A program made the translations under genes and the position numbers. This document shows positions 1,640-19,547 of a DNA stretch of 20,537 nt, in pieces. The notes beneath the pieces were generated by a model. It was not told the DNA's origin. It did no database searches and saw nothing but the letters and a program-made list of their open reading frames with translations. This stretch comes from a virus: IMG/VR virus record IMGVR_UViG_3300044997_000286, positions 1 through 20,537 of that record; one strand, 5' to 3'. Position 1 is the first letter of the stretch, and every line of letters starts with the position of its first letter.

Positions 1640-2850
1640 GAAATAGTGCTGACGGTGAAATTGAAAAAATAGTTAAGAATACTTATCGTTATTGGGTTGA
1701 GATGAATGATGGTAAAAAATATTTAGATATTCAATCTGGCAACAGTGCTTTTATACTTGGTTATGGAAATACTGAAATTATAAAAGCAATGGCTGACAAA
1801 ATATTTTCTGTTAGTTTTTTAAGAGGTAATACAGGTGAGACTGATGTTGATACTCAGGAACTAGTTTCTTTTGTATTATCTGAATCAAGAATGTCAGTAA
1901 TGTCTTGGGCTATTTCTGGCACATCAGCAGTGGAATGTGCGATTATGATGAATGATAGTTATTGGAAACAAGTAAATGCTAAAAAACATTTAATCGTATC
2001 TTGTTCTCCAGGATATCACGGTACAAGTTATTTGACTAGATGTATGGCTAATCCATATTCAATCGAATTTCCATCAGATAGATTAAGATGTATTCGTGCA
2101 CCTAAATGGAGGAATATAGAAGAACGTGCAGATGAAGAACAAAGAGCAATTATAGAGTTAGAAAGAAGACTCTCTAAATTTGATGACTCTTCAAATGTTG
2201 GTGCTTTTATAATGGAAACTTGTCCTTGGATGAATGGAATATTACCATATAGTAGATGGTGGTGGAATAGTGTAAGAAGTATTTGTGACAAATATAAAAT
2301 AAATTTTATTACAGATGATGTAGCAGTATGTTGGGGCAAATCATTATCTTATTTTGGTTATTCAACAGCAGGATACAATATTCAACCAGATATTATTGCT
2401 TGCGGTAAATCATTATCAGCAGGGTATGCACCGATAGGATTCGCAGTAGGTAATGCTCGTATAGGTGAAGTCCTTTCAACACAGGAGTGGGGATGGGGGC
2501 ATACTTGGCAACCTTATATGGCTGGTATTGGTGCGATGAAAAAAGTAAAAGAAATTATTTCAAATAATGGTTTATTTCATATAGCAAAAAATACAGTTAT
2601 ACGATTAGAAGAAATAGCAAAAGATTTATATAATCAAGGTTATTTAAATTGTTATAGACAAGAGGGTTTATTTTTAGAATTAGATTCTAAAAAACCAATT
2701 CTTGGAGTAATGGGAAAACTTATACGTTCAGGAATGTTATCAACTACTACACAAGACAGTTCAGTTAGAATTATAGCTAATTTAATTGCTGATGATGAGT
2801 ATTTTAGGGAATTAAAGGCAAGATTAAATGACTTTTTTAGCAAAAATTAA
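1627..2850 (+). CDS. Class III PLP-dependent aminotransferase
   Basis: This 407-residue protein has the class III (ornithine/GABA aminotransferase, glutamate-1-semialdehyde mutase) landmarks in order. They are S-G-T-S-A-V-E-C-A at about 97-105 (phosphate cup), Y-H-G at 130-132 (ring stacking), T-D230-D at 229-231 in place of the usual D-E-V (PLP N1), C-G-K261-S-L-S-A-G-Y-A-P-I-G (Schiff-base Lys261), and G-H-T-W at 291-294 in place of HxxTF. All key PLP ligands are present, so it should be active. It would move an amino group between an amine or amino acid and a carbonyl, or act as an aminomutase; the substrate is unknown. The 13-nt overlap with the SDR suggests a two-step alcohol-ketone-amine conversion (inference). 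The length is normal for the family. Confidence 0.9.
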   Translation: MYELRNSADGEIEKIVKNTYRYWVEMNDGKKYLDIQSGNSAFILGYGNTEIIKAMADKIFSVSFLRGNTGETDVDTQELVSFVLSESRMSVMSWAISGTSAVECAIMMNDSYWKQVNAKKHLIVSCSPGYHGTSYLTRCMANPYSIEFPSDRLRCIRAPKWRNIEERADEEQRAIIELERRLSKFDDSSNVGAFIMETCPWMNGILPYSRWWWNSVRSICDKYKINFITDDVAVCWGKSLSYFGYSTAGYNIQPDIIACGKSLSAGYAPIGFAVGNARIGEVLSTQEWGWGHTWQPYMAGIGAMKKVKEIISNNGLFHIAKNTVIRLEEIAKDLYNQGYLNCYRQEGLFLELDSKKPILGVMGKLIRSGMLSTTTQDSSVRIIANLIADDEYFRELKARLNDFFSKN

Positions 2851-6833: not shown

Positions 6834-7372
6834 AAAAAGAAATTACTCATTGGAGAGACAGAGCGTCTAATTTTAGAAAGTTATCTGATGTTGAGTTAAA
6901 CAACTGTTTAGCTAAATTAAAAAAATCTAAATTAAGTGCTAATATTCAAGATGACATGATTATGTGCCTTTCCAATTTAAGAGATTTAGGAATGGTTCCA
7001 TCTTTTCATATGGAATTACGAGAAAAGTTTTTTATATATTGTAAAGAGATAGGTGTAGATATCGATAGTTATAAAAGAGCAGAAGAAAAAAGAGTTATGA
7101 GTTCTTCTTTTGGTAGTATAGTGTGGGATAAGATAGTTAAACTATTAAACGATAATGAGGCAGATACTTCAAAAAGAGTTAAGGGTATAAAGAAATTAGT
7201 TCTTTTTCGTTTATTACAAAAAGAATTACCAGATGTTGATAAAAAACATATTCATAAAAACGTTAAGGCAAATATTAAATTAGGTGCTTTAGAATATCAT
7301 CAACAATCTAAGTCAAGTAAATTAATACGTAAAGGACAATATTGGAACACATATGTTAAAGTCAATAAGTAA
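6821..7372 (+). CDS. Hypothetical protein (183 aa)
   Basis: A soluble, mostly helical, basic protein, the last of the small-gene chain from P2. It overlaps its upstream neighbour by 13 nt and the desaturase by 20 nt. Helical segments run at about 1-35 (W-R-D-R-A-S-N-F-R-K-L-S), 40-80 and 100-135 (V-K-G-I-K-K-L-V-L-F-R-L-L-Q-K-E-L-P). The C-terminal part is Lys/His-rich and ends in W-N-T-Y-V-K-V. I do not recognise a family. The overlap with the desaturase ties the two in expression, not necessarily in function. Confidence 0.75.
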   Translation: MQEVKKEITHWRDRASNFRKLSDVELNNCLAKLKKSKLSANIQDDMIMCLSNLRDLGMVPSFHMELREKFFIYCKEIGVDIDSYKRAEEKRVMSSSFGSIVWDKIVKLLNDNEADTSKRVKGIKKLVLFRLLQKELPDVDKKHIHKNVKANIKLGALEYHQQSKSSKLIRKGQYWNTYVKVNK

Positions 7373-8186
7373 TTTTAGTTGGGAAGAATTTTCAACACGT
7401 AATAATCTATATTTTCGTGTTGCTTATTATATTTTTGTACATATATTAGCATTATTCGTATTTAAATATGGTACACTTACTACATTCTTTACGTTCATTT
7501 TATTCTGGTGGTTTGGTGCTTGGGCTGTATCAGGATATACGCATAGAGCACTTTCACATGGTTCAATTAAAGTTAAGAGTAATTTATTAGAACATTTAAG
7601 TAATATATTTGCTATATACGCAGGTATTGGTACTCCTTTAGGGTGGGCAGCACTACATCGTATGCATCATACTCATCTCGATACTCATTTAGATCCACAT
7701 AGTCCACACAGAATAGGATTTTGGAGATCCTATTTACATTTATGGGATTGGCGAAAAGAAGATGTACCATTAAAATATACAACAGGATTATTTCGTAATC
7801 ATATTGCTATGTATTATCACAATCGTGCTATTCCTACTTTATTTTTATTTTGGATTAGTTTATATATCGTATCAGAATTTTTAAAAGTTAATTTAGGAAT
7901 ATTGGGTGGCTTAGAAGTTTGTATTGGAGCAGCATTAGCTGTAGTTGCAGGATTACATGGAATGGGTGTTACAAATGCAGTAAGTCATAATCATGAAACA
8001 CCTAAACAAGTTATATCACTTGATCCAATCGCAGGTGCATTTATTAATTGGGGTGAAGGCAATCATGAATATCATCATGCTAAACCAAGGGATTATTCTT
8101 TTGGTGATGGTATCTCAGATCCTGTTGCTAGGACTGCCGAATTATTTGAACAATTAGATTTAGTTGAGATAAACAGAAACGAGTGA
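7353..8186 (+). CDS. Membrane fatty-acid desaturase (delta-9 type)
   Basis: This 277-residue integral membrane di-iron enzyme has all three histidine boxes: H64-R-A-L-S-H69, H102-R-M-H105-H106, and H238-E-Y-H241-H242, with hydrophobic segments at about 22-60, 82-98, 158-178 and 185-205. Length and box spacing match the DesC/stearoyl-type delta-9 desaturases, which use O2 and electrons from ferredoxin or cytochrome b5 to place a double bond in an acyl chain. It should be active and could raise membrane unsaturation in the infected cell. Desaturases are known auxiliary genes of marine T4-like phages. The gene starts within its upstream neighbour (20-nt overlap). Its stop region forms the left arm of a perfect 20-bp inverted repeat. 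Confidence 0.93.
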   Translation: MLKSISNFSWEEFSTRNNLYFRVAYYIFVHILALFVFKYGTLTTFFTFILFWWFGAWAVSGYTHRALSHGSIKVKSNLLEHLSNIFAIYAGIGTPLGWAALHRMHHTHLDTHLDPHSPHRIGFWRSYLHLWDWRKEDVPLKYTTGLFRNHIAMYYHNRAIPTLFLFWISLYIVSEFLKVNLGILGGLEVCIGAALAVVAGLHGMGVTNAVSHNHETPKQVISLDPIAGAFINWGEGNHEYHHAKPRDYSFGDGISDPVARTAELFEQLDLVEINRNE

Positions 8187-9132: not shown

Positions 9133-9855
9133 ATGTTATTTAATGAATCGGTTATAAATCATAAAGCACTTCATTATCAGATATGCCCTCTTCCTTTAAA
9201 TGATGAAGGAATGAAGTGGATGGAAGAACAAACATTTTCAAAACAAACTAAATTATGGGTGCCGATTAAGTATCACAGTCATGTGTTTTTGAAATGGACT
9301 AAAATGATTGGTTTAAGTATTACAGATATAGAATTATTTTATAATCCACCAAGTCATTCAATGCCTGTTCATATTGATGGAAATAATATTCATGATGAAT
9401 TTAAATTAAATTATGCTTTTAATCCAGTTGGAAATAGTTTAATGAATTGGTTTAAACCTAAAGTAAATACAGTAGCAAAAGCTCAAGGAGTGTTGTACGA
9501 AAATCAATCTGAAAGAGATATTAATACAGCAGATTTATATTGGTATCCTGATGAAGTTGATTTAGTTGAAAGTCATGATATTAAAGTTTCAATTGTTCAA
9601 GTTGGACAACCACATAATGTTACTACTACTCATTCTTCTCGTAAATGTTTATCTTGTGTATTTGATAAAATATTAATTCCAGGATGGACTACAAATGATC
9701 AGATTATATTAAATGAAGATTTAAGTAAAATATCATTAGATAGAGATAAAGCAGTTAAAGATGGAATTTTACAAGATGTTGTACCAATGTGGGATGCTGT
9801 AAATTTGTTTAAAAATTATATTATACAGCATGAACAGCATGAACAACATGAATAA
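9133..9855 (+). CDS. 2OG-Fe(II) oxygenase-like protein, family B member 1
   Basis: A 240-residue protein in which the double-stranded beta-helix iron site can be traced: M-P-V-H80-I-D82-G (HxD), then G-Q-P-H161-N-V (distal His) and S-R170-K-C-L-S (Arg that would hold the 2-oxoglutarate C5 carboxylate). Two proteins downstream (10018-10611 and 10580-11200) share the same plan, H-x-D then G-x-P-H-x-(V/I/M) then R, so the three are paralogues. The expected chemistry is O2- and 2OG-dependent hydroxylation of an unknown substrate, in the cytoplasm. The C terminus is a Q-H-E-Q-H-E-Q-H-E repeat made by a 9-bp tandem repeat that also contains starts for the next gene. Confidence 0.7.
   Translation: MLFNESVINHKALHYQICPLPLNDEGMKWMEEQTFSKQTKLWVPIKYHSHVFLKWTKMIGLSITDIELFYNPPSHSMPVHIDGNNIHDEFKLNYAFNPVGNSLMNWFKPKVNTVAKAQGVLYENQSERDINTADLYWYPDEVDLVESHDIKVSIVQVGQPHNVTTTHSSRKCLSCVFDKILIPGWTTNDQIILNEDLSKISLDRDKAVKDGILQDVVPMWDAVNLFKNYIIQHEQHEQHE
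9826..9852 (+). repeat. 9-bp tandem repeat (three units) at a gene junction
   Basis: Three copies of CAGCATGAA (9826-9834, 9835-9843) and CAACATGAA (9844-9852). In one frame they encode the Q-H-E triplets that end the upstream protein. In another frame each unit supplies an ATG (9830, 9839, 9848) for the zinc-finger gene. Copy-number change would alter both proteins without shifting either frame, since the unit is nine bases. Confidence 0.95.
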
Positions 9856-10021
9856 AAAAACAATTATAGAAACTTCAGAAGATACAGTTTACTGTGATGG
9901 ATACGATCCTGATCTAGATGACGATACTCATCCAAGAGTATTTTATACATTAAAAGAACGTCCAAATGGTGAAATAAATGCTGTTTGTTTTTATTGCGGT
10001 ATAATTTTTAAAAAAGTATGA
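9830..10021 (+). CDS. Small CHCC-type zinc-finger protein (57-63 aa)
   Basis: The sequence shows C22-D-G, then T-H34-P-R-V-F-Y, then C53-x-x-C56-G, which is the zf-CHCC pattern (C-D-G...H-P-x-V...C-x-x-C-G) found in mitochondrial complex I subunit NDUFS6 and in small bacterial proteins. One zinc ion should be held by the three Cys and one His. The middle is unusually acidic (D-P-D-L-D-D-D). Any of three ATGs (9830, 9839, 9848) in the 9-bp repeat could start it. It overlaps oxygenase genes on both sides (26 nt and 4 nt), so it is co-expressed with them, perhaps as a partner (inference). Confidence 0.75.
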   Translation: MNSMNNMNKKTIIETSEDTVYCDGYDPDLDDDTHPRVFYTLKERPNGEINAVCFYCGIIFKKV

Positions 10022-10611
10022 AAAATATTTATTGCGCAAATTTAAAATTACCAGTAAACGATGTAATGATAGATAAAAACTGGTTAAGTAAAATGCCTAA
10101 AAAGGGACACTTTCCTATACCAGAAAAAGAAGTAAATCCTGAATTATTAGATTTTTTTGAAAGCAAAGGAATGTACTTAAAAAATGCTGATGTATTTTGT
10201 TCTCCTCCTGGATTTTATTTACAAATACATATTGATGGAACAGATTTGGGTACTAATTCTTGTGCGATTAATTGGCAATATTGTACAGAAAAAGGTTCTT
10301 ATATGCAATGGTGGAATCCTAAACCTGAATTTGCAAATAAAGAAATTATAGAGCCAGAAAGTTTTAGTGAAAATAGTTATAAAATAGAAACAACACCATA
10401 TGCTTATGCTTGGACACCTGAAGAATGTGATTTAATTCATACATCTGAAATAGGTTATCCATCATTAGTAAATATTGGAGTACCACACTCAATGAAAAAT
10501 GATACAAAAGTTAATCGATATGCCGTTAGTTTAACTTGGAGGCGTTATAACGGTTCAACAGTAGAATGGAATTACGTATATGAGAAACTACAGTCATACG
10601 TTATGGCGTGA
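10018..10611 (+). CDS. 2OG-Fe(II) oxygenase-like protein, family B member 2
   Basis: A 197-residue paralogue of the preceding oxygenase-like protein. L-Q-I-H71-I-D73-G supplies two iron ligands, G-V-P-H157-S-M the third, and N-R167-Y-A-V the likely 2OG-binding Arg. Q-W-W-N-P-K-P (97-103) corresponds to N-W-F-K-P-K in member 1, a family-specific tryptophan segment between the two halves of the site. All metal ligands are present, so it should be active. It starts at an ATGA overlap with the zinc-finger gene and its end overlaps the next paralogue by 32 nt. The substrate is unknown. Confidence 0.7.
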   Translation: MKNIYCANLKLPVNDVMIDKNWLSKMPKKGHFPIPEKEVNPELLDFFESKGMYLKNADVFCSPPGFYLQIHIDGTDLGTNSCAINWQYCTEKGSYMQWWNPKPEFANKEIIEPESFSENSYKIETTPYAYAWTPEECDLIHTSEIGYPSLVNIGVPHSMKNDTKVNRYAVSLTWRRYNGSTVEWNYVYEKLQSYVMA

Positions 10612-11200
10612 GTTAAATTTACCAATATCACCGATTACTAAGGATTACGTATTTCCGAAAGAGTCGGAACAACACGATAACGCAAAGTATGAGGATCATT
10701 ACGCACAAAGAGAATTAATTAATCCTGATTTTATTAATTGGGCTAAGTCTATAGATCTTGGTGTACTCCGTATTGAAAGATTTTCATCTAAACCAAATTA
10801 TAGAATGTATATTCATACGGATAATGATGATTGGATAGATGATTTAGTTAAAATTATTTGGTGTTATTGTCCTACAGATGATCATTTTATGCATTGGTAT
10901 GATGTTAAAGATGTAACTTATTTCGAAACTGAAACAAATAACGATTCTGGTCCGACAATGCGATTTCCAGACTTTAATATTGATAAACTTATTACAAGCA
11001 CAACTATTAAACAAAATCCTATACTTGCGAATACTGGGCGACCGCATAATATAGAAAACGGAAGTAGTTATAGACATGTAGTTTGTGCTTGGTTTCATGA
11101 TTTAAAGTCAAATGAAACAGTTATAGCAGATGGAAACACTTATCCAAAACCTCTTCAGTGGAATGTTGCAGTTGAACGTATGAGTAAGTTTATATTATAA
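10580..11200 (+). CDS. 2OG-Fe(II) oxygenase-like protein, family B member 3
   Basis: A 206-residue paralogue of the two preceding oxygenase-like proteins. The site is M-Y-I-H79-T-D81, H-W-Y-D-V-K (105-110, the family tryptophan segment), G-R-P-H156-N-I and Y-R165-H-V-V. The metal set is complete. The start gives an unusual 32-nt overlap with the previous gene; the region before the first conserved block is long enough that a later start is conceivable, but no better ATG with a ribosome site is seen. Its stop codon lies inside a duplicated 17-bp unit that also carries TATAAATA late-promoter boxes for the ketosynthase gene. Confidence 0.7.
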   Translation: MRNYSHTLWRELNLPISPITKDYVFPKESEQHDNAKYEDHYAQRELINPDFINWAKSIDLGVLRIERFSSKPNYRMYIHTDNDDWIDDLVKIIWCYCPTDDHFMHWYDVKDVTYFETETNNDSGPTMRFPDFNIDKLITSTTIKQNPILANTGRPHNIENGSSYRHVVCAWFHDLKSNETVIADGNTYPKPLQWNVAVERMSKFIL

Positions 11201-11236: not shown

Positions 11237-12412
11237 ATGAAACCAGTATATGTAGTTGGATATGGAATGATTGATAGTCTTGGAAATAATTCAAAAGATT
11301 GTTTCGATAGGATGTTAGATAATCATGATTATTCTTCTGAATTAACTGAATTGAAAGCAGAAAATGCTAAAGTGTATCGTGGTGCTATATTCAATCCAAA
11401 CGATTGCATTATACCAAAAGAATTTGATATTAAAATGCTTAGGTCATTGACCAATGCACAAAAAATGATGCTTCACGCAGTTGATGCAGCATTAAAAATG
11501 TCAAAGTTAACACATCACTATGATGTAGCAACTCTTCTTTCAACAGTTTCAAACGATACTGAATTTCTAGATGAGTTGTATTTACCCACAAAAAATCATA
11601 AAAGAGTAAATCCTAGAAAGTCAGCAAATCGTATTCCAGATATGGGATGTTCGCATATAACATCTTATTATAAATTTATGGGATTAAGTGCAGCAACATT
11701 CGCAAGTTGTTCTACTGGTCTTGTGACAATCGATTATGGAATGCGATTAGTTGATGAATATGAATACGTAGTTGTTGGTGGAGCTGATGCAGGTTGTTTT
11801 CCAATGGCTATTAAGTATTTCAATACATTAGGTGCTGTAGGAAATTACAGTATGCCTTTTGATGATAGCCGTACTGGTTTTTTAATGGGCGATGGTTGTG
11901 GTGTACTAATATTGCAATCAGAAGCTATGGTTAAAAAGTACGGAAGTAAGGTATTCGCTAAGTTATATCCTTGCGGTATGGCTAGTGATGCTTTAGATAT
12001 GACAAGCCCTGCTAATGATGGTCGTGGTGCTCGTATTAGTATGTCTAAAGCAATAAAAGATATCGGAGAAATAGATTTTGTATGTGCGCATGCAACTTCT
12101 ACACCAATAGGTGATCCGATAGAGTACGAAACTGTAGCAAGTTTCTTGGGAGAAAAACCTATTTGGGCTCCGAAGTCTAAAATAGGTCATACCCTAGCAG
12201 CTGCTGGAGTGTTAGAATGTATATATTCAATTATTTCAATGGAAAAAGGAATAATTCCTCATATACATAATTTAAAGAGTGCTTCTTGCGATACTAAAAA
12301 TCTTTTAGTACGTGAGAATTTAAAAACTAACAAAAAAGTATTGCGAACATTAAATAACTCATTCGGATTTGGGGGAAAATGTATGTCGCAAGTAATAGAG
12401 GTAAATAAATGA
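11237..12412 (+). CDS. Beta-ketoacyl-ACP synthase (FabF-like)
   Basis: A 391-residue thiolase-fold enzyme with a full decarboxylating-ketosynthase site: Cys158 in A-S-C-S-T-G, His285 in A-H-A-T-S-T-P-I-G-D, Lys313 and His318 in K-S-K-I-G-H-T-L-A-A-A-G, and the C-terminal S-F-G-F-G-G (375-380). The triad and lysine are those of KAS I/II, so it should condense an acyl chain with malonyl-ACP. It is slightly shorter than E. coli FabF (about 410 aa). The canonical N-A-H-G-T-S-T reads C-A-H-A-T-S-T here. It follows duplicated late promoters and overlaps a small membrane-protein gene by ATGA. It may extend host fatty acids, feed the phage desaturase, or serve a special acyl product; the sequence does not decide. 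Confidence 0.92.
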   Translation: MKPVYVVGYGMIDSLGNNSKDCFDRMLDNHDYSSELTELKAENAKVYRGAIFNPNDCIIPKEFDIKMLRSLTNAQKMMLHAVDAALKMSKLTHHYDVATLLSTVSNDTEFLDELYLPTKNHKRVNPRKSANRIPDMGCSHITSYYKFMGLSAATFASCSTGLVTIDYGMRLVDEYEYVVVGGADAGCFPMAIKYFNTLGAVGNYSMPFDDSRTGFLMGDGCGVLILQSEAMVKKYGSKVFAKLYPCGMASDALDMTSPANDGRGARISMSKAIKDIGEIDFVCAHATSTPIGDPIEYETVASFLGEKPIWAPKSKIGHTLAAAGVLECIYSIISMEKGIIPHIHNLKSASCDTKNLLVRENLKTNKKVLRTLNNSFGFGGKCMSQVIEVNK

Positions 12413-12558
12413 AAACAATAATACTTTTAGCAATCGGTGTATTAATCGGTTGGCTTTATAAACCAGCGTTTGCTGATAATATTATAAACAAATCTAAAGA
12501 AATTATAATTGGTGCTTACACTAATTTGAAATCCTTATTTAAAAAAGGAGACAAATAG
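12409..12558 (+). CDS. Small membrane or secreted protein (49 aa)
   Basis: Starts at an ATGA overlap with the ketosynthase stop. Residues 3-16 (T-I-I-L-L-A-I-G-V-L-I-G-W-L) form one membrane helix, followed by Y-K-P-A-F-A-D-N, where A-F-A could be a signal-peptidase site. The rest is amphipathic and Lys-rich (L-K-S-L-F-K-K-G-D-K). It is either a single-pass inner-membrane peptide or a short exported one. No family is recognised. Coupling to the ketosynthase places it in the late block. Confidence 0.65.
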   Translation: MKTIILLAIGVLIGWLYKPAFADNIINKSKEIIIGAYTNLKSLFKKGDK

Positions 12559-12563
12559 TAAAA

Positions 12564-12974
12564 ATGGCACGGACAATTAGTAAAACGGAAATAACAAATA
12601 CAAAGGAGATACCCCAACGTCAAAAATCGTGGGGTTATCACCTAATTATTGATGCAAAAGGTTGTACTAAAAATTTTAATAAACCAGAAATTTTAAAAAC
12701 ATTTTTAAATGACCTTTTAGTTCAAATTGATATGAACGCATGGGGTGATCCATGGATTACTCACTTTTCTGAAAAACCAGAGATAGCTGGTTGGACAGTA
12801 ATACAAGCATTGACTACAAGTTCATTAACAATACACTTTTTAGACAATAGTGGTGATTGTTATTTCGATTTGTTTTCGTGCAAAACTTTTGATATTGAAA
12901 TGGTGAAAACTATGATAAAAGTATACTTTGATCCTATTTCAATGAAGGATCAGTATCTTGTTAGACAAGCGTAA
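12564..12974 (+). CDS. speD: S-adenosylmethionine decarboxylase-like proenzyme (SpeD/SpeH type)
   Basis: A 136-residue protein with W-G-Y-H-L-I-I-D-A-K-G-C (residues 23-34), like the opening strand of bacterial AdoMetDC (G-x-H-L-I-x-D-x-x-G-C), and S-L-T-I-H91...F-D-L-F-S-C106. Ser86 lies 5 residues before His91, and Cys106 lies 15 after, the same spacing as Ser63, His68 and Cys83 of the Thermotoga enzyme. Ser86 would become the pyruvoyl cofactor by self-cleavage. The residue before it is Thr where Glu is usual, so processing should be tested. The product, decarboxylated AdoMet, donates aminopropyl groups for spermidine. SpeD genes are known in cyanophages. It overlaps the next gene by 17 nt. 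Confidence 0.82.
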   Translation: MARTISKTEITNTKEIPQRQKSWGYHLIIDAKGCTKNFNKPEILKTFLNDLLVQIDMNAWGDPWITHFSEKPEIAGWTVIQALTTSSLTIHFLDNSGDCYFDLFSCKTFDIEMVKTMIKVYFDPISMKDQYLVRQA

Positions 12975-13440
12975 CATCACACCAAAAGAAGCAGTAAAAG
13001 AGTGGTTGGCGAGACTTAAAATACCTCGCCAAGCACTTGATGGTCATTCCATATGTCCCTTTAGTAAAGGAATTAATGTAAAAAAACCAGAGGACTTGCA
13101 TATAGATATATCTTTCCGCCCTCCTTTACTTTCACAAATTAGAAAAATTAAAATTTATAATATAACCAATCCTAATCTTACACCTGTAGAATTAGATTAT
13201 TGGTGTGAATATTTTACAAACAGATATGAAAATTATATATTTATGAGTGACCATAAAGATAGAGACACTTATATTAATGGAATTAAAACGAATAATGGTT
13301 ATTTTAATTTCATGTTAGTTCAAAGTTTACCAGAATTAAATGAAGCACGTAAGAGTTTATTAAAAACAAACTATTATAGTTTTTGGGATCCTGAATACTT
13401 AAAAGAGACTTGGAATAATAGTTTTAACAAAGATGAATAA
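12958..13440 (+). CDS. Hypothetical protein between speD-like and amidinotransferase genes (160 aa)
   Basis: A soluble protein overlapping the AdoMetDC-like gene by 17 nt and ending 2 nt before the amidinotransferase. It has W-L-A-R-L-K-I-P-R, then D-G-H-S-I-C33-P-F-S-K-G, a D-I-S-F-R-P-P strand, and a late segment L-P-E-L-N-E-A-R-K-S-L-L...W-D-P-E-Y. The C-P-F motif near the N terminus recalls small uncharacterised bacterial proteins with a C-P-W/C-P-F opening, but I cannot name a family. Its place between two arginine/AdoMet enzymes suggests a shared role (inference). Confidence 0.7.
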   Translation: MLDKRNITPKEAVKEWLARLKIPRQALDGHSICPFSKGINVKKPEDLHIDISFRPPLLSQIRKIKIYNITNPNLTPVELDYWCEYFTNRYENYIFMSDHKDRDTYINGIKTNNGYFNFMLVQSLPELNEARKSLLKTNYYSFWDPEYLKETWNNSFNKDE

Positions 13441-13442
13441 TT

Positions 13443-14525
13443 ATGAGTGTTTGGACTGACTACGATTCATTAAAAGAAATTATTATTGGTGTTATACCAA
13501 AGCCTGAATACTTTTCAAATTTTTTAAAACCAGATATATTAGAAGTCCTTATTCCAATTATAAAAGAAACAGAAGAAGACTTAGAAAGATTTTCGAATAT
13601 ATGTACTTCTTTAGGGGTAAAAGTATACAGACCAAAGGTAATGGATTTTAGAGAACCATTAAAGCTTCCTGGATTTAAAATTAAAAATCCAATCGCACCA
13701 TTAGTTCCGAGAGATAGTTATCTAGTATATGGAAATACAATCTATTCTTCTTATACAAGTATGGCTGATAGGTGGTTAGAGTCATTATCCTTTTATGATA
13801 TATTTATGGATAAGTATAAAGAAGGATATAATTGGATATCGACACCAGTTCCACAGCTAAAAGATTTTCGCCCTGATACTCAATGGTACACTCATGGTGG
13901 TGATCGTTATGGAGTAGATTTAGTTAATAAAATATTATGGCATTGTGCTACGATGTATAAATGTGGTGATGCAATAATTGTAAATTCTTCTGGTCCTGGA
14001 ACTAAGTTAGGATATGAATGGATGAAACGAAACATACCAAATACTAGATTTATAGATAATGGAAATAAACCACATCGAGGATGGGGGCATATAGATCAGT
14101 TTTTTTTTCAAACAGATGACACAACTGTATTCTGTACTAATCGAAACTATGTACCTGAGGTATTCCTAAATAATAATAAGTTTAAAGTACATGAATTTGG
14201 TCATTTAATTAAAGATGTAGATATGAAAATATATGAACATCGTCTTGCTCAAACAGATGGTAAGTATAGTATTGAATGGATTAATGAGTGGATAGATGAA
14301 TGGAGAGGTTTTGCTCAAGAAGTAGCATTTGATAGTAATGTAGTTGTAGTTGATAATAAAAATATAATTGTTACTAACGAACAACCAGCACTTTCAAATT
14401 ATTTTAAAGAATTTGGTATAACATTACATCCTGTTAATTTAAGACAAGGTGGATTTTGGGATGGCGGAGTTCATTGTTTATCACTTGATATTAAACGAGA
14501 TGGAGAAAAAAGAAGCATTATATGA
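13443..14525 (+). CDS. Amidinotransferase (glycine amidinotransferase-like)
   Basis: A 360-residue enzyme of the guanidino-group-modifying superfamily. Visible active-site elements are P-R90-D91-S-Y-L-V (substrate/positioning Asp), D176 in C-G-D-A-I-I-V-N, W-G-H216-I-D218-Q (catalytic His with Asp), and G-G-V-H-C345-L-S-L-D (nucleophilic Cys), in the order and spacing of AGAT. Enzymes of this family transfer the amidino group of arginine through a Cys-amidino intermediate to an amine such as glycine, releasing ornithine; deiminase-like hydrolysis is the alternative. The length fits AGAT-type enzymes better than arginine deiminases. It lies 2 nt after one gene and overlaps the first array oxygenase by ATGA. 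The acceptor amine is unknown. Confidence 0.85.
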   Translation: MSVWTDYDSLKEIIIGVIPKPEYFSNFLKPDILEVLIPIIKETEEDLERFSNICTSLGVKVYRPKVMDFREPLKLPGFKIKNPIAPLVPRDSYLVYGNTIYSSYTSMADRWLESLSFYDIFMDKYKEGYNWISTPVPQLKDFRPDTQWYTHGGDRYGVDLVNKILWHCATMYKCGDAIIVNSSGPGTKLGYEWMKRNIPNTRFIDNGNKPHRGWGHIDQFFFQTDDTTVFCTNRNYVPEVFLNNNKFKVHEFGHLIKDVDMKIYEHRLAQTDGKYSIEWINEWIDEWRGFAQEVAFDSNVVVVDNKNIIVTNEQPALSNYFKEFGITLHPVNLRQGGFWDGGVHCLSLDIKRDGEKRSII

Positions 14526-15517
14526 GAAAAGTTTATAACTGGATAAATCCTACACATTACGTGGATTATGAAAAATTAAAGAATGTAATCGTTCCTTTAA
14601 TGCAAGAAGATTTAAATGAGTGGATGAAAACAAATCCTATTGAGACAAGCACTGAATGTGCTTATGCTCCACCAGAAGAAGTAGAAGAAAAAATATTATC
14701 ACAGAAACAAGAGATAAAAGCACATAAGAATCGTTCGATAGCTTATAAAGAACTTCTTACAGATGAAGCTGAAAGAAAACATTATAATGACTGGAGATCA
14801 ATAGATTTTCTTTATGAACGTAAATGGAATAAAGAAGTATTTAAAAGATCTTGGCAATTAATGTCTGAGTGTGTAGGAGTTAAACAAATTTTTATTAATT
14901 TTATTAAACCACATGGAATTATTACACCACATCTAGATACTTCTACTTGGGAAAAAATAGAAGAAGACTGGGAATTACCACTTTATACATTAGAGGGTGC
15001 AAGTATTATTGCTACACTTTTTACAGGTATGAAAAATAGAGAAACTAAGTCTGTTGGAATGAAAGTTAATGGAGTTTATAAGTATCCATTAGCAGGAGAA
15101 TTAGTTTGCTTTGATGGAAGATGGAACGAACATCAAATGTGGAATAATACAGATGAATGGAGAATTACAGCAGTTATAGATATTGATAGAAAATTTTTTA
15201 ATGAAGTAGTTGAAGATGTTGATGAAGAAAAAATAGAAATAAAAAAACCAAAAGACATAATTACCATAGAGGAAGGTGTAACACTTAAACTTAAAAATTA
15301 TTTTAGCAAAGAAGAAGTAGAATATTATTTAAATCATAATTTAACTGAGAAAATAGAATTTTTAAAAGATAGAATACTTTGGTTAACCAATTCAGGGCGT
15401 AAAATATACGCAGACTATTTAGATGAAGATTCAACAACAATTTTTTTAAATAGTAATATAGCAAAAATAGATATTTACTTTAAATCATATAGAGATTTTT
15501 ATGTTCATAGCACCTAA
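14522..15517 (+). CDS. Asp/Asn beta-hydroxylase-like 2OG oxygenase with C-terminal extension (array member 1)
   Basis: This is the first and longest (331 aa) of six paralogues. The core site is I-N-F-I-K-P-H-G-I-I-T-P-H137-L-D139 (HxD), C-F-D-G-R-W-N-E-H204-Q-M-W-N-N-T (distal His) and E-W-R214-I-T-A-V-I-D (2OG Arg). The order H-x-D, F-D-x-x-x-x-x-H-x-x-W-N, R-I-x-x-V-x-D resembles aspartyl/asparaginyl beta-hydroxylases, except that the second position is Asp where AspH has Gly, so a full facial triad is present. Residues 230-331 are an extra region found in no other member here and not recognised. An insertion at 50-85 is Glu/Lys-rich. It overlaps the amidinotransferase by 4 nt. Confidence 0.78.
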   Translation: MRKVYNWINPTHYVDYEKLKNVIVPLMQEDLNEWMKTNPIETSTECAYAPPEEVEEKILSQKQEIKAHKNRSIAYKELLTDEAERKHYNDWRSIDFLYERKWNKEVFKRSWQLMSECVGVKQIFINFIKPHGIITPHLDTSTWEKIEEDWELPLYTLEGASIIATLFTGMKNRETKSVGMKVNGVYKYPLAGELVCFDGRWNEHQMWNNTDEWRITAVIDIDRKFFNEVVEDVDEEKIEIKKPKDIITIEEGVTLKLKNYFSKEEVEYYLNHNLTEKIEFLKDRILWLTNSGRKIYADYLDEDSTTIFLNSNIAKIDIYFKSYRDFYVHST

Positions 15518-16196
15518 TTCTTATATTGATTATGCTTTTTTATTAGATTATTATCCATCATTAGTTGAGGATATGAATGAATGGCTTAAAACGCATACAC
15601 CAGAAAAAGATTCAATAAGTGTATATGCTGATGATGAACCTGTAAATAAATTTTTATCTACTACTATTAATTTCGTAGAAACTTGGACAACTCATGAAGA
15701 ATATGAGCATCGTAATGATTGGAAATCTATACCTGTATTCTTTGAAAAGGTGTGGAATGAGAAAGATTTTCCTAGATTTTCAGAGCATGGTAAAAAATTA
15801 AAAGGATTAAGGCAATTAATTATTAATTTTATTGCTCCATATGGTAAAATAACATTACATACTGATGTTGATAATTGGGCTAAGATGACTCAAGACTGGG
15901 GTTGTAAATGTGAAGGATATTCATTAATTGCTACTTTGAAATCAGGTATGAAAAATTCTAAAGAAGAAACAGTTGGAACACGCATAAGAAATATTAAAAC
16001 TGGTGATGACACATGGGCTTATCCAATTGAGAATGAATTTGTTTGTTTTGATGGATTAAATTATAATCATGCAATAACTAACAATACAAACGAATGGAGA
16101 ATTTCAGCTGTGTTTGATATTGATAAAGAAAAATTTAATTCTAATTATATTAAAACTGGTAAACAAGTTTGTGAATCTTTTAAAGAAATTATATGA
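15501..16196 (+). CDS. Asp/Asn beta-hydroxylase-like 2OG oxygenase (array member 2)
   Basis: A 231-residue paralogue of the preceding oxygenase. The shared blocks are V-E-D-M-N-E-W-L-K-T-H (22-32), R-N-D-W-K-S-I-P (71-78), I-I-N-F-I-A-P-Y-G-K-I-T-L-H120-T-D122, Y-S-L-I-A-T-L-K-S-G-M-K-N, V-C-F-D-G...H190, and E-W-R200-I-S-A-V-F-D-I-D. The metal and 2OG residues are complete. The start overlaps the previous extension by 17 nt, and its end overlaps the next gene by ATGA. It lacks the tryptophan after the distal His seen in most paralogues (A-I-T-N-N-T instead of M-W-N-N-T), which may affect substrate choice. Confidence 0.78.
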   Translation: MFIAPNSYIDYAFLLDYYPSLVEDMNEWLKTHTPEKDSISVYADDEPVNKFLSTTINFVETWTTHEEYEHRNDWKSIPVFFEKVWNEKDFPRFSEHGKKLKGLRQLIINFIAPYGKITLHTDVDNWAKMTQDWGCKCEGYSLIATLKSGMKNSKEETVGTRIRNIKTGDDTWAYPIENEFVCFDGLNYNHAITNNTNEWRISAVFDIDKEKFNSNYIKTGKQVCESFKEII

Positions 16197-16888
16197 AAGA
16201 CTATCCTTTTAGTTTAAAATTAGAAAAAATATTTGATCCAATTATAAATTTAAATTCTATATACACGTACCCTGCTGGTAGGCATGTTTTAGAAAAGGTT
16301 TACGATCATAAAACAACTAAAATATCTTCAGATAATTTAAAAAAATTAGAAACTGATAATTGGAAAGTAAAACTAATCGAATTATATGTTATACCACATG
16401 AGACTAAATGGACTGATATAAATTCAACTCATTGTGGATATCCAAGTCTTGATCCTCATATATTAAGACATTATTCACCAAATATATCAATGGAAGGAAC
16501 TGCTAAATTATTTTTTATATATGGTGGCGATTTAAATAGTAAAATGGAGTGGTTTAAATTAAAACCTTTAGCTTCAGAAAGTTCATTTAACAGCGATGGT
16601 CACCCTCTGACAAAGCGTAATTACGCATTTTGTGCTGCTCTTTTTAAAGAAAGTGATTGTGAATTAATTTTTGAATCAAAATTACAAAATTTAATGTTTA
16701 TTAATGTATCATTACCTCATAGAATAAATAATTCTAATTCTTATAAAAAGATTTATATAATAAGTTGTTTATTTGAAGATGAAGAATATGAAATTAAAAA
16801 TAATGTTCATGAAAAATGGATACATTATACCAGAGGAATATCGATTAAACAAGCTTCTCAAATATATAATAATTTATTAGAAAAATAA
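16193..16888 (+). CDS. Degenerate family B oxygenase-like protein
   Basis: This 231-residue protein sits inside the AspH-like array but resembles the other family (9133-11200). M-E-W-F-K-L-K-P (118-125) and N-V-S-L-P-H176-R-I-N-N align with N-W-F-K-P-K and G-x-P-H-x-(V/I/M). At the HxD position it reads D-P-H89-I-L91, so the iron-binding Asp is replaced by Leu, and the Arg position holds Lys (Y-K185-K). It is therefore probably unable to bind iron normally and may be a pseudo-enzyme, partner or regulator. The frame is intact and overlapped by its neighbour (ATGA at its start), so it is not a decaying pseudogene. The alignment is by eye. Confidence 0.62.
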   Translation: MKDYPFSLKLEKIFDPIINLNSIYTYPAGRHVLEKVYDHKTTKISSDNLKKLETDNWKVKLIELYVIPHETKWTDINSTHCGYPSLDPHILRHYSPNISMEGTAKLFFIYGGDLNSKMEWFKLKPLASESSFNSDGHPLTKRNYAFCAALFKESDCELIFESKLQNLMFINVSLPHRINNSNSYKKIYIISCLFEDEEYEIKNNVHEKWIHYTRGISIKQASQIYNNLLEK

Positions 16889-16889
16889 A

Positions 16890-17633
16890 ATGTGGATGGA
16901 TGTAAAAAAATATAAAGATTATCAAAAATTAAATGATTGTCAACCTTTAATTATTGATGATTTAAAAAATTGGTTAAAAACTCACAAAATTGAAGAAGCA
17001 AAACTTGTATTTTCCAGTAATGACTCAAAAGATTCAGTAAGAAAACATAACTGGAATATTTCTTATGCTTGGCTAACTCCAAAGGGAATAACTTTTACTG
17101 ATCCTGAAGAAGAAGTAGATGAAACAGAAGATACTCCAAATCCAGCATTTAATCCAAACACATATAAACATGTAGATAATTGGAGATTTGTTCCAGGATA
17201 CGTTGAGGGTAAATGGAATATGGAATTTTTAAGTGTAAAAACACAAAAAGTATTAAGTGAATTACAAGGATTGCTACAAATGAATATAAATTTCTTAACT
17301 CCATTTGGAAAAATAACACCACATACAGATGTGGGTAGTTGGAATAAAATGGCTACTTATTATAATAAGCCAGACATAGATGGCTATTTAATTATATCAA
17401 CAATACATTCGGGTATGACGGATCCTAAAACTAAAACGGTGGGTATGCGTGTAGGTATAGGTGACTCGTATATGAATTGGCAACCAGATGATTATGTTGA
17501 ACGTAGATACCCATTAGTTGGAGAATTAGTTTGTTTTGATGGAAGAAGAGGGGTTCATGACATGTGGAATAATACAAAAGAGTATCGTATAACTGCTGTA
17601 TTTGATATAGATAAAAACGCATTTAATTTATGA
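16890..17633 (+). CDS. Asp/Asn beta-hydroxylase-like 2OG oxygenase (array member 3)
   Basis: A 247-residue paralogue starting 1 nt after the previous stop. It opens M-W-M-D-V-K-K-Y-K-D-Y, matching the openings of members 5 and 6. The site is M-N-I-N-F-L-T-P-F-G-K-I-T-P-H145-T-D147-V-G-S-W, V-C-F-D-G-R-R-G-V-H223-D-M-W-N-N-T and E-Y-R233-I-T-A-V-F-D-I-D. All residues are intact. An acidic insert (D-P-E-E-E-V-D-E-T-E-D, about 71-81) lies before the conserved D-N-W-R-F-V-P block. Soluble, cytoplasmic, probably 2OG- and O2-dependent; the substrate is unknown. Confidence 0.8.
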   Translation: MWMDVKKYKDYQKLNDCQPLIIDDLKNWLKTHKIEEAKLVFSSNDSKDSVRKHNWNISYAWLTPKGITFTDPEEEVDETEDTPNPAFNPNTYKHVDNWRFVPGYVEGKWNMEFLSVKTQKVLSELQGLLQMNINFLTPFGKITPHTDVGSWNKMATYYNKPDIDGYLIISTIHSGMTDPKTKTVGMRVGIGDSYMNWQPDDYVERRYPLVGELVCFDGRRGVHDMWNNTKEYRITAVFDIDKNAFNL

Positions 17634-18328
17634 TAATTGAAACACGAACATTTAAATGGTATAAACAATTAATTGAATTACAAGAATTAATTAAAGAAGA
17701 TTTTAATAATTGGTTATTAAAATATAAATTTGAAGATAGAGTTCAAGTACAAAAATTTGAAAATCCAGAAGTGTATCCTGAATATTCAAACATTACAGGT
17801 GATATGGATGATTATCATAGACCTGAGAATATAAAAGATAAAGAAGAGGGTAAGTCAAAAGAATATTGGTTTTGTGATCCTATACTTACAAATAAAGGTA
17901 ATATTAAATGTAAGTATTATGAAGATTGGAAAAACTCTGCTGACTTTGCTGCTAAAATTCCAGGACTAGTACAATATATTGTAAATTTTGTAAGACCAAA
18001 AGCTAAACTTCCTATGCACGATGATAGTGGTGGTTGGAAAAGACAAGAAAAAGATTTAGGAATTAAATTAAACGGATTTACAAATGTATTTGGTTTACAA
18101 GCTAATGGAAATAATTCTTATTTTGAATTTGGTAAAACAAATTCTAAACACCCATTAAACACAGGACAATGGATAACATTTGAAGGCAAAACACATGATC
18201 ACAACGTAGTGAATAATAGTAGTATGTGGCGTGTAACTGCAGTTGTCGACTTTTTAGCATCTGAGTATAACCTTTCAATAGAAGAAAATAAATACTTAAA
18301 TCATAGATGGAATAACTATAATTACTAA
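17630..18328 (+). CDS. Asp/Asn beta-hydroxylase-like 2OG oxygenase (array member 4)
   Basis: A 232-residue paralogue with an ATGA overlap at its start. The site is V-N-F-V-R-P-K-A-K-L-P-M-H130-D-D132-S-G-G-W-K-R, W-I-T-F-E-G-K-T-H-D-H191-N-V-V-N-N-S and M-W-R201-V-T-A-V-V-D-F. The ligands are present. This and the next two members share L-P-(M/L/V)-H-x-D and the F-x-G...H...N-W/M-W-R pattern, so they form a subgroup distinct from members 1-3 (T-P-H or T-L-H). The N-terminal 100 residues are poorly conserved, which suggests divergence of substrate or partner binding. Confidence 0.76.
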   Translation: MIIETRTFKWYKQLIELQELIKEDFNNWLLKYKFEDRVQVQKFENPEVYPEYSNITGDMDDYHRPENIKDKEEGKSKEYWFCDPILTNKGNIKCKYYEDWKNSADFAAKIPGLVQYIVNFVRPKAKLPMHDDSGGWKRQEKDLGIKLNGFTNVFGLQANGNNSYFEFGKTNSKHPLNTGQWITFEGKTHDHNVVNNSSMWRVTAVVDFLASEYNLSIEENKYLNHRWNNYNY

Positions 18329-18329
18329 T

Positions 18330-18914
18330 ATGTGGATAGACGCAAAAAAATATAAACATTATGAATATCTTAATAAAAGTTTAATTCCTGCATTGGAATT
18401 AGATTACAATAGATTTATTCGTAAATTTAATATAATAGAAACAGGTATAAATGTATTTCGATTTGAATATCCAAATCGAGAAGATGATCATGCTGATGAT
18501 TGGTGGGCAATACCACTTATTCAAGGAGGCAAAGCAGTTCCACCTTTAAAAAATCCATGGCAGCATTCAACAGCAAGTCTTAAAGAAATTCCAGGAGTAT
18601 TTCAATCGATCGTAAACTTTATAAAACCATTCGGTGGTTTACCATTACATCACGATTTTGGTAGTTGGCAAAGGATTGAAGAAGCATTAGGTCGTCGAGT
18701 AGAAGGATATACACTTGCGATAGGTATTGATATGCCTTCAAATGACCCAAATATTTGTGGTATGGAGTTTGAAAATGACAATTATCCAAGAACTTATAAA
18801 AATAATGAAATCGTAGCATTTAATGGGCGTGATTATATGCATAGAGTATGGAATAAGACAGGAAATTGGCGTGTTTCTTGCGTAATTGATACAAATGTAG
18901 ATAGTTGGTTATGA
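18330..18914 (+). CDS. Asp/Asn beta-hydroxylase-like 2OG oxygenase (array member 5)
   Basis: The most compact array member so far (194 aa), starting 1 nt after the previous stop with M-W-I-D-A-K-K-Y-K-H-Y. The site is I-V-N-F-I-K-P-F-G-G-L-P-L-H107-H-D109-F-G-S-W, I-V-A-F-N-G-R-D-Y-M-H171-R-V-W-N-K-T and N-W-R181-V-S-C-V-I-D. All key residues are present. The usual F-D of the FDGR block is F-N. It ends 1 nt before the -35 box of promoter P3, so the next paralogue can be expressed separately. Confidence 0.8.
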   Translation: MWIDAKKYKHYEYLNKSLIPALELDYNRFIRKFNIIETGINVFRFEYPNREDDHADDWWAIPLIQGGKAVPPLKNPWQHSTASLKEIPGVFQSIVNFIKPFGGLPLHHDFGSWQRIEEALGRRVEGYTLAIGIDMPSNDPNICGMEFENDNYPRTYKNNEIVAFNGRDYMHRVWNKTGNWRVSCVIDTNVDSWL

Positions 18915-18915
18915 C

Positions 18916-18944
18916 TTTACAAACAACTTAAATTATAGTATAAT
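18916..18944 (+). promoter_or_regulatory. Sigma70-type promoter P3
   Basis: TTTACA (18916-18921) and TATAAT (18939-18944) are 17 bp apart within TATAGTATAATAT, which is identical to the P1 -10 region. The element fits exactly in the 39-bp gap between two oxygenase paralogues. The start point would fall near 18950-18952, leaving two to four bases before the ATG at 18954, so the transcript should be leaderless or nearly so. Only the last oxygenase and the following genes would come from it. Confidence 0.8.
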
Positions 18945-18953
18945 ATTGAATAT

Positions 18954-19547
18954 ATGTGGCTTGGTAATCCTACAAATTATAAACACTATCATGAATTAAG
19001 CATTATGATGATGGCTTTGATGAGCGATTATGCTGAATGGAGAAGGCAACGATCCTTTGAAACAAATACAGTAAATGCTGATGATCGTTATTCTATGCCT
19101 ATTGAAAATAAAGGTGGATTTAAAGCATTACCATTAATTGATGCTCGCAAAATAAATGAACAACTAGAAGATAGATATTATTGGAAACGTGCTACTACAC
19201 AATTTTATCATATTCCTGGTGCTATAGATTTATGTATTAATATGATACGTCCTGGGAAAATGTTACCAGTTCATCATGATGGTTATGTTTGGGACTGGAT
19301 CCGTCAGAGTATGGGAGATCCTACGTTAGAGGGGTATACTGTAAGCTTTGGTATTGATATACCAGAACCTGAAAATCAAGGACTAATATTTGATGGTGTA
19401 GAAAAAATTTGGAAAACAGGTGAGTTCGTAGCGTTTAATGGTCATGATATTCAACATAGTTTAACAAATAAATCAAATAATCCAATGCATTGGCGTGTGA
19501 CAGCTGTAATGGAAATAGATAAAAAAGAATTTAACACAATACAATAA
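18954..19547 (+). CDS. Asp/Asn beta-hydroxylase-like 2OG oxygenase (array member 6)
   Basis: A 197-residue paralogue opening M-W-L-G-N-P-T-N-Y-K-H-Y. The site is I-N-M-I-R-P-G-K-M-L-P-V-H107-H-D109-G, F-V-A-F-N-G-H-D-I-Q-H168-S-L-T-N-K-S and H-W-R181-V-T-A-V-M-E-I-D. The metal and 2OG residues are complete. It keeps the family's central E-G-Y-T-(V/L)-x-x-G-I-D strand shared with member 5, its closest relative by eye. It is the only array member with its own sigma70-type promoter (P3) and would be made early from a near-leaderless mRNA, while the others may be expressed from upstream late promoters. Confidence 0.8.
   Translation: MWLGNPTNYKHYHELSIMMMALMSDYAEWRRQRSFETNTVNADDRYSMPIENKGGFKALPLIDARKINEQLEDRYYWKRATTQFYHIPGAIDLCINMIRPGKMLPVHHDGYVWDWIRQSMGDPTLEGYTVSFGIDIPEPENQGLIFDGVEKIWKTGEFVAFNGHDIQHSLTNKSNNPMHWRVTAVMEIDKKEFNTIQ

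What the first reader, a model, noticed from the sequence alone, without database searches (positions are those of the whole stretch)
11237..14525. Ketosynthase, AdoMet decarboxylase and amidinotransferase next to the oxygenases
A FabF-like ketosynthase, a SpeD-like proenzyme and an AGAT-like amidinotransferase, all with complete active-site residues, lie in one late-type block feeding into the oxygenase array. Amidino transfer from arginine releases ornithine, a polyamine precursor, and SpeD provides the aminopropyl donor. Alternatively, ketosynthase, SDR, aminotransferase and amidinotransferase chemistry could make a guanidino or amino acyl product later hydroxylated by the array. Either would be a new phage-encoded pathway.
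Basis: partly seen in the sequence, partly recalled or inferred. Interest (0 to 1): 0.7.

Follow-up and report, generated by a model that had tools for sequence, protein, structure and literature searches.

The report
Paired phage guanidino and acyl cassettes
A freshwater bacterial virus carries a fatty-acid-type enzyme next to a pair that probably turns arginine into putrescine plus an unknown guanidine compound; comparison with many other phages shows two cassettes that usually travel apart, so this is a revealing but largely familiar kind of viral metabolic gene set.

Summary
The three genes are real, on one strand, in a T4-like freshwater pelagimyophage-type genome. Two corrections. (1) The SpeD homologue keeps the self-cleaving Ser/His/Cys but carries the Gln/Thr/Phe/Tyr set published as diagnostic of pyruvoyl ornithine decarboxylase and lacks the proline of true AdoMet decarboxylase; it should make putrescine, not an aminopropyl donor. 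(2) The amidinotransferase has the right fold (Z 32-33 to HsvA, AGAT, SxtG, StrB1), but the triad Asp is His, as in most phage relatives. The genes do not form one obligate pathway: none of 23 other amidinotransferase contigs carries the ketosynthase, and 1 of 22 other ketosynthase contigs carries an amidinotransferase. The ketosynthase has a desaturase within 6 kb in 7 of 20 lineages, and FabI and AcpS in marine relatives. The amidinotransferase recurs with a small unknown protein (12 of 25 lineages), a class III aminotransferase (5), SpeD (4) and an SDR (3). Best reading: an arginine-ornithine-putrescine/guanidino cassette beside a separate acyl cassette. speH, fabF and desaturase in such phages, and phage SpeD-type ornithine decarboxylases, are in print; the amidinotransferase-aminotransferase-SDR association was not found in my searches. 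Products are unknown.

The parts
1058..1639 (+). short SDR-like protein (193 aa), start of the SDR-aminotransferase pair
   Evidence: No Pfam/NCBIfam hit itself; relatives by blast in G001, G009, G036; phage SDR relatives next to amidinotransferases L126-L130, one of which has weak NCBIfam SDR hits, 5e-4
1627..2850 (+). class III PLP aminotransferase (407 aa), overlaps the SDR ORF by 13 bases
   Evidence: Pfam Aminotran_3 2e-41; relatives next to amidinotransferases in 5 of 25 lineages
7353..8186 (+). fatty-acid desaturase (277 aa) with three His boxes (HRALSH, HRMHH, HEYHH)
   Evidence: NCBIfam DesA 3.5e-7; marine orthologue Pfam FA_desaturase 5.7e-8; within 6 kb of the ketosynthase in 32 of 80 loci, 7 of 20 lineages
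9133..11200 (+). three 2OG-type oxygenase-like genes (9133-9855, 10018-10611, 10580-11200) directly before the ketosynthase
   Evidence: read from sequence (HxD...H); family 'OX' near KS in 26 of 80 loci
11237..12412 (+). ketosynthase, FabF-like, C158-H285-H318
   Evidence: Pfam and PDB hits, invariant triad
12409..12558 (+). 49-aa ORF with a hydrophobic N-terminus, ATGA overlap with the ketosynthase stop
   Evidence: homologue in 11 of 80 KS loci
12564..12974 (+). SpeD-family protein, predicted pyruvoyl ornithine decarboxylase (Q81, T85, S86, H91, F92, Y100, C106)
   Evidence: Pfam 2.7e-13; residues; published diagnostic residues PMC10407285
12958..13440 (+). phrog_10325 protein, 160 aa, TTG start, invariant W16, C33, P34, Q122, T137, Y139, Y140, W143; function unknown
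   Evidence: alignment; near the amidinotransferase in 32 of 78 loci, 12 of 25 lineages
13443..14525 (+). amidinotransferase (360 aa), Cys345/His216/Asp218/Asp91, His167 in place of the triad Asp
14522..19547 (+). downstream oxygenase array, coupled to the amidinotransferase by a 4-base overlap
   Evidence: ORFs; Pfam Asp_Arg_Hydrox 2.5e-6 for the first

Best explanation
The block is two cassettes in one late-type gene string of a T4-like freshwater pelagimyophage. Cassette A (guanidino/polyamine): the amidinotransferase takes the amidino group of arginine, passes it to an amine and releases ornithine; the SpeD homologue, a pyruvoyl ornithine decarboxylase, turns that ornithine into putrescine, which also pulls the reversible transfer forward. 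The upstream SDR and class III aminotransferase probably make the acceptor amine, and the 160-aa phrog_10325 protein serves the amidinotransferase. Cassette B (acyl): the ketosynthase and the desaturase extend and desaturate an acyl chain on the host's carrier protein, with the neighbouring oxygenases as possible modifiers; in marine relatives this cassette includes enoyl reductase, holo-ACP synthase and an ACP domain. Shown: genes, folds or families, residues, gene neighbourhoods. Inferred: every reaction, both acceptors and the products.
For: SpeD: Q81, T85, F92, Y100 and no proline, the same in all 15 window-group sequences; true-SpeD-type sequences in the same script (L107, L208, L219) read ESH...HTWPE. 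The set Gln, Thr, Phe, Tyr is published as diagnostic of the ornithine decarboxylase group (PMC10407285 section 7), and five SpeD homologues of freshwater phages were measured as ornithine decarboxylases (PMC9992855). Fonsibacter's own 'ODC' acts on arginine, so a phage ODC would add a step. Amidinotransferase: model pLDDT 86, Z 33.2 to HsvA, 32.5 AGAT, 32.2 SxtG and StrB1, against 24.3 for the best deiminase. Linkage A: P10325 32 of 78 loci (12 of 25 lineages), aminotransferase 18 of 78 (5 of 25), SpeD 15 of 78 (4 of 25), SDR 5 of 78 (3 of 25), against aminotransferase and SDR 0 of 80 around the ketosynthase. L129 carries SpeD, P10325, amidinotransferase, SDR and aminotransferase within about 9 kb. 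Linkage B: desaturase 32 of 80 KS loci, 7 of 20 lineages; FabI 7, AcpS 8, ACP domain 3 of 24 contigs. Separation of A and B.
Against: No activity is shown for any protein. The triad Asp is His in the amidinotransferase, so catalysis or substrate may differ. The figure with the diagnostic SpeD positions was not visible to me; I matched letters and order from the text. phiN3 SpeD, a measured AdoMet decarboxylase, shares three of the four residues. In three lineages A and B travel together, and gene overlaps in the window suggest co-expression from KS through the oxygenases. 48 of 80 KS loci and 13 of 20 lineages have no desaturase within 6 kb. No ACP or AcpS was found in the window group. SDR and aminotransferase lie about 10 kb from the amidinotransferase in the window. 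Lineage counts are collapsed at 70% identity only; the loci are the best 78 of at least 556 and the best 80 of 111 relatives.
Confidence: 0.62

Rival explanations
1. One pathway: ketosynthase, SDR, aminotransferase and amidinotransferase together build a guanidino- or amino-acyl compound that the oxygenase array then hydroxylates.
For: Window group, G009 and divergent G036 all carry SDR, aminotransferase, desaturase, oxygenases, KS, SpeD-P10325-amidinotransferase and a second oxygenase set; in G036 all on one strand in the window's order at 31-57% identity. Overlapping reading frames from KS to the oxygenases (sequence).
Against: KS absent from 23 of 23 tested contigs of other amidinotransferase lineages and amidinotransferase absent from 21 of 22 tested KS contigs. 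In G036, KS and SpeD are 6.5 kb apart. No dedicated ACP in the window group.
Confidence: 0.15
2. Bona fide polyamine boost: SpeD is a true AdoMet decarboxylase supplying aminopropyl groups, the amidinotransferase only makes ornithine, KS and desaturase top up host lipid enzymes.
For: SpeD-type AMGs with real AdoMetDC activity exist in phages, among them phiN3, 37% identical to this one.
Against: Residue set matches the ornithine decarboxylase group and phiN3 lacks the Thr; no spermidine synthase match in 11 of 11 group contigs.
Confidence: 0.12
3. The SpeD homologue is an arginine decarboxylase (as in pelagiphage HTVC201P) and the amidinotransferase makes or uses agmatine-like guanidines.
For: HTVC201P SpeD homologue decarboxylates arginine and lies near the ODC clade (PMC9992855, PMC10407285).
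Against: All four ODC residues are present; five of five measured freshwater phage homologues act on ornithine, one of them clearly also on arginine.
Confidence: 0.11

Closest known systems
Pyruvoyl-dependent ornithine decarboxylase SpeDC of freshwater phages (PMC9992855, PMC10407285)
   Same: Phage-encoded, small class 1b SpeD homologue; Ser/His/Cys kept; Gln, Thr, Phe, Tyr present; no proline after the His
   Different: Here linked to an amidinotransferase that could supply its ornithine; sequences of the tested phage proteins were not available to me, so identity to them is not known
Amidinotransferases HsvA, AGAT, StrB1, SxtG
   Same: Fold and length; Cys, His and two Asp of the active site
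   Different: Triad Asp replaced by His in this phage family; acceptor unknown; only 22-25% identical in structural alignment
Fonsimyophages, group PMP-D (PMC7029224)
   Same: Paper reports speH, fabF, stearoyl-CoA desaturase and a 2OG oxygenase in freshwater pelagimyophages
   Different: Amidinotransferase and aminotransferase do not occur as words in that text; identity of the window to those genomes was not tested
FabF (beta-ketoacyl-ACP synthase II)
   Same: Both Pfam domains, Cys-His-His triad, E. coli FabF-type chain 2.6e-41
   Different: 211 bits against the FabF equivalog cut-off of 493.75; GFGGKC in all 8 aligned phage relatives where FabF has GFGGTN; forms its own phage family
Amidinotransferase of Campylobacter phage CP220
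   Same: Phage amidinotransferase, 29% identical
   Different: Sits among radical SAM and glycosyltransferase-like genes, keeps Asp where the window has His

Membership tests
Ketoacyl synthase (thiolase fold, FabF/FabB type) | N- and C-terminal ketoacyl synthase domains | tested here: met
   Pfam PF00109 1e-22, PF02801 3.7e-22, above cut-offs
Ketoacyl synthase (thiolase fold, FabF/FabB type) | Cys-His-His catalytic triad | tested here: met
   C158, H285, H318 invariant in 8 relatives, aligned to FabF
FabF equivalog | Curated NCBIfam score cut-off | tested here: not met
   211.3 bits against 493.75
Bona fide AdoMet decarboxylase (SpeD class 1b) | Conserved proline after the catalytic His | tested here: not met
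   HFLDN against HTWPE in L107, L208, L219
Bona fide AdoMet decarboxylase (SpeD class 1b) | Partner spermidine synthase in the genome | tested here: inconclusive
   No PF01564 match in 11 of 11 contigs, but contigs are fragments and a host enzyme could serve
Pyruvoyl ornithine decarboxylase SpeDC | Processing and catalytic Ser, His, Cys | tested here: met
   S86, H91, C106
Pyruvoyl ornithine decarboxylase SpeDC | Diagnostic Gln, Thr, Phe, Tyr | tested here: met
   Q81, T85, F92, Y100 in order; positions inferred from the text of PMC10407285, figure not seen
Pyruvoyl ornithine decarboxylase SpeDC | Decarboxylates ornithine, not AdoMet | not testable with these tools
   needs the purified protein
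Amidinotransferase (AGAT/StrB1/HsvA) | Amidinotransferase fold closer than to deiminases | tested here: met
   Z 33.2-32.0 for six amidinotransferase chains, then 24.3
Amidinotransferase (AGAT/StrB1/HsvA) | Nucleophile Cys and general-acid His | tested here: met
   C345 and H216 invariant in 30 phage sequences
Amidinotransferase (AGAT/StrB1/HsvA) | Triad Asp (AGAT Asp254, number recalled) | tested here: not met
   His167 aligned to the Asp of FDAADF
Amidinotransferase (AGAT/StrB1/HsvA) | Transfers amidino group from arginine to an amine | not testable with these tools
   needs an assay

The most novel reading that the evidence does not exclude
Phages of several lineages share an undescribed guanidine-making cassette: SDR and class III aminotransferase make an amine, a modified amidinotransferase (Asp to His) with its phrog_10325 partner guanidinylates it, and a SpeD-derived ornithine decarboxylase removes the ornithine by-product as putrescine, so that one arginine yields both a guanidino compound and a polyamine for the virus.
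Probability: 0.38. Interest if true: 0.75.

Novelty: new variant of a known kind. Interest (0 to 1): 0.5.

Why it matters
Phage polyamine and lipid genes are usually listed one by one. Here neighbourhood data across 25 amidinotransferase lineages and 20 ketosynthase lineages give two testable modules: an arginine-to-putrescine route that uses amidino transfer in place of arginase, in phages of what are probably SAR11-type hosts whose own decarboxylase acts on arginine, and an acyl module that in marine relatives includes carrier protein, its activating enzyme, enoyl reductase, ketosynthase and desaturase. The first could explain why SpeD-type ornithine decarboxylases occur in phages at all, and points at an unknown guanidino product.

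Tried and rejected
SpeD as aminopropyl donor: rejected on residues and no spermidine synthase match.

One pathway through the ketosynthase: weakened, not excluded.

A MaoC-like dehydratase in the marine contig (L068:16946-17461, minus strand) looked likely by eye, but had no Pfam, NCBIfam or PDB sequence match, so it is not counted.

Function of phrog_10325 by structure: good model (pLDDT 89.7), but no Foldseek match below 0.001 and best VIA Z 3.5 (rmsd 4.8, 81 aligned); nothing learned.

PDB profile search with the SpeD alignment gave only chance hits and an AdoMetDC proenzyme (1tlu) at E 0.64. Promoter and terminator scans were not usefully above shuffles: 71 promoter-like against 80.7 expected, 4 terminator-like against 2.8.

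Ornithine-lipid synthesis (ornithine + acyl chain + OlsC-like hydroxylase) was considered: the only support is an OlsC hit of E 0.026, so it stays a guess. DNA hypermodification: no evidence sought beyond reading the genes of G001.

The regular expression was wrong by one position and matched nothing; the residues were read from the printed segments instead.

Absence in the literature rests on the searches in the held library only; most subscription papers are not in it.
Full report
WHAT IS THERE. The window holds a single + strand string of late-type genes. Within 11237-14525 lie five ORFs: ketosynthase 11237-12412; a 49-aa ORF 12409-12558 whose ATG overlaps the ketosynthase stop; SpeD homologue 12564-12974; a 160-aa protein with a TTG start 12958-13440 (phrog_10325); and the amidinotransferase 13443-14525, whose end overlaps the first gene of the following oxygenase array (14522). 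The genome is a fragment of 20,537 bases; near-identical contig G004 and a 144.8-kb relative G001 show T4-type genes such as UvsX/RecA-like, DNA polymerase, RNR, terminase-like and tail proteins (read from sequence by eye). Gene content fits the freshwater pelagimyophage group PMP-D, putative Fonsibacter phages, for which a paper already lists speH, fabF, stearoyl-CoA desaturase and a 2OG oxygenase (PMC7029224, section 8 and passages read). I did not test host or identity to those genomes.

KETOSYNTHASE. Pfam and PDB matches are strong and the Cys-His-His triad is invariant in eight aligned relatives. It falls far below the FabF equivalog cut-off, 211 against 493.75 bits, and all eight read GFGGKC where FabF reads GFGGTN, so it is a divergent, phage-specific branch. 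A profile scan of viral contigs found 111 relatives; the best 80 loci fall into 20 lineages at 70% identity. A desaturase lies within 6 kb in 32 of 80 loci and 7 of 20 lineages; in 48 loci and 13 lineages it does not. In 24 contigs from the first scans (the window included), FabI occurs in 7, AcpS in 8 and an ACP domain (in a 323-aa protein with a DSLD motif) in the three long marine contigs G005, G006 and G007. In 16 further KS contigs one has an ACP and none an AcpS. The window group has neither, so its ketosynthase would have to use a host carrier protein (inference).

SPED HOMOLOGUE. It is 37% identical to SpeD of Sinorhizobium phage phiN3. The processing Ser, His and Cys are present (S86, H91, C106). 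Around them it reads IQALTTSSLTIHFLDNSGDCYFDLFSC; a true-SpeD type in my set (L107) reads [27 protein letters not shown]. A paper on these enzymes names Gln, Thr, Phe and Tyr in this region as diagnostic of the ornithine decarboxylase group, and a proline as the mark of true AdoMetDC (PMC10407285; abstract, sections 5 and 7 and passages read). The window has all four and no such proline; all 15 window-group sequences agree. phiN3, measured as a true AdoMetDC and placed in the ODC clade by the authors, has Gln, Phe, Tyr but Asp in place of Thr. The same authors measured five SpeD homologues of lake and freshwater phages as ornithine decarboxylases (PMC9992855; abstract, sections 5 and 6 read). 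A FastTree of my set groups the window with L123, next to bacterial sequences of the ETS type, away from phiN3 and from the true-SpeD types; branch support was not inspected. No spermidine-synthase family match was found in 11 of 11 contigs of the window group; the same search rings in 14 of 14 control genomes, over the cut-off in 10.

AMIDINOTRANSFERASE. No Pfam hit and NCBIfam only chance scores; PDB sequence hits are HsvA, StrB1, SxtG and AGAT. The AlphaFold model (mean pLDDT 86.1, 30 sequences) matches six amidinotransferase chains at Z 33.2-32.0 (rmsd 3.0-3.3, 308-318 aligned) and the best deiminase at 24.3 (rmsd 3.3, 287 aligned). HsvA, AGAT, SxtG and StrB1 are tied, so the acceptor cannot be told. 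In 30 aligned phage sequences Cys345, His216, Asp218 and Asp91 are invariant; His167 stands where HsvA has the Asp of FDAADF, and is nearly invariant, L187 keeping Asp. CP220, outside that set, also keeps Asp, and the marine record L079 has Asn.

WHO TRAVELS WITH WHOM. Relatives of the amidinotransferase are common: at least 556 matches in viral contigs, of which the best 78 loci were kept (25 clusters at 70% identity). Within 6 kb of it: phrog_10325 in 32 of 78 loci (12 of 25 lineages), class III aminotransferase in 18 (5 lineages), SpeD in 15 (4), SDR in 5 (3), ketosynthase in 12 and desaturase in 9 (both the window group only). Around the ketosynthase: aminotransferase 0 of 80, SDR 0 of 80, phrog_10325 15 of 80 (window group only), SpeD 17 of 80 (window group, plus L208 and L219 of the true-SpeD type). 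In the window, in L130 and in G036 the SDR and aminotransferase ORFs overlap each other (13, 10 and 4 bases), and in L130 this pair lies directly against phrog_10325-amidinotransferase. L129 has SpeD, phrog_10325, amidinotransferase, SDR and aminotransferase within about 9 kb. By whole-contig search, 0 of 23 contigs of other amidinotransferase lineages carry the ketosynthase family and 1 of 22 other KS contigs carries the amidinotransferase; the ketosynthase profile found its family in 6 of 6 positive controls. Among the first 28 KS contigs, SpeD, phrog_10325 and amidinotransferase are present in 15 and absent in 13, always together; many of these contigs are fragments.

RESULT AGAINST THE SPLIT. 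Contig G036 (52 kb), 57% identical in KS and 46% in amidinotransferase, carries SDR-aminotransferase, desaturase, four oxygenases, KS, then SpeD-phrog_10325-amidinotransferase and three more oxygenases, all on one strand and in the window's order, with 6.5 kb between KS and SpeD. G009 also has the full set. Joint retention in three lineages may be descent of one region or a shared role; it keeps the one-pathway reading alive at low probability.

MECHANISM. Most likely: arginine + amine gives guanidino compound + ornithine (amidinotransferase); ornithine gives putrescine + CO2 (SpeD homologue). Amidino transfer is freely reversible and inhibited by ornithine in AGAT (recalled, no call), so decarboxylation of ornithine would pull it. 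SAR11-type hosts are reported to decarboxylate arginine, not ornithine, so the phage step would be new to the cell (PMC9992855). The aminotransferase and SDR would supply the acceptor. The acyl cassette would act on host acyl-ACP. All of this is inference from family, residues and neighbourhood.

NOVELTY. Phage SpeDC, phage fabF/desaturase, and glycine-amidinotransferase annotations in viral catalogues are in print (PMC9992855, PMC7029224, PMC8226683 table row, PMC11360552 passages). I found no paper on the amidinotransferase-aminotransferase-SDR-phrog_10325 association or on a phage ACP/AcpS/FabI/KS set in the searches and 107 of the held library (listings read; PMC11480375 and PMC7678222 passages also read). 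PMC11360552 says that viral genes of the ocean, taken together, cover fatty acid synthesis. I rate this a new variant of a known kind.

Noticed in passing
L042:12981-13418 (marine relative G005): Phage-encoded cytochrome c with a heme motif close to the ketosynthase (Pfam 2.5e-8).
   Followed up: partly
L069:15921-17198, minus strand (G005): Myo-inositol-1-phosphate synthase in the same marine phage (Pfam 8.9e-10).
   Followed up: no
L069:5440-6411, minus strand (G005): 323-aa acidic protein with an acyl carrier protein domain in its middle (DSLDAIELI).
   Followed up: partly
window:12958-13440: phrog_10325 also occurs in 25 T4-like cyanophage records (S-PM2, Syn1, S-RIM44 and others), as unannotated or hypothetical genes.
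   Followed up: partly
L105-L110 except L107: Bacterial two-domain SpeD fusions (about 270-290 aa) found by the SpeD scan, with ESH in the second domain.
   Followed up: no
L076:12350-13582: A second class III aminotransferase, 34% identical to the first, lies beyond the window's right end in the overlapping contig.
   Followed up: partly
L080-L104: Close SpeD relatives with the same Gln/Thr/Phe/Tyr set in Methylophilaceae, Verrucomicrobia and Chlamydiae-type genomes.
   Followed up: partly
window:8365-8440: tRNA-Arg (ACG) between desaturase and oxygenases, also in G001 at the same place.
   Followed up: no
L155-L179: Many amidinotransferase relatives in marine phages sit in clusters of radical SAM-like proteins (cluster of 130 members in 32 loci), as in Campylobacter phage CP220.
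   Followed up: partly
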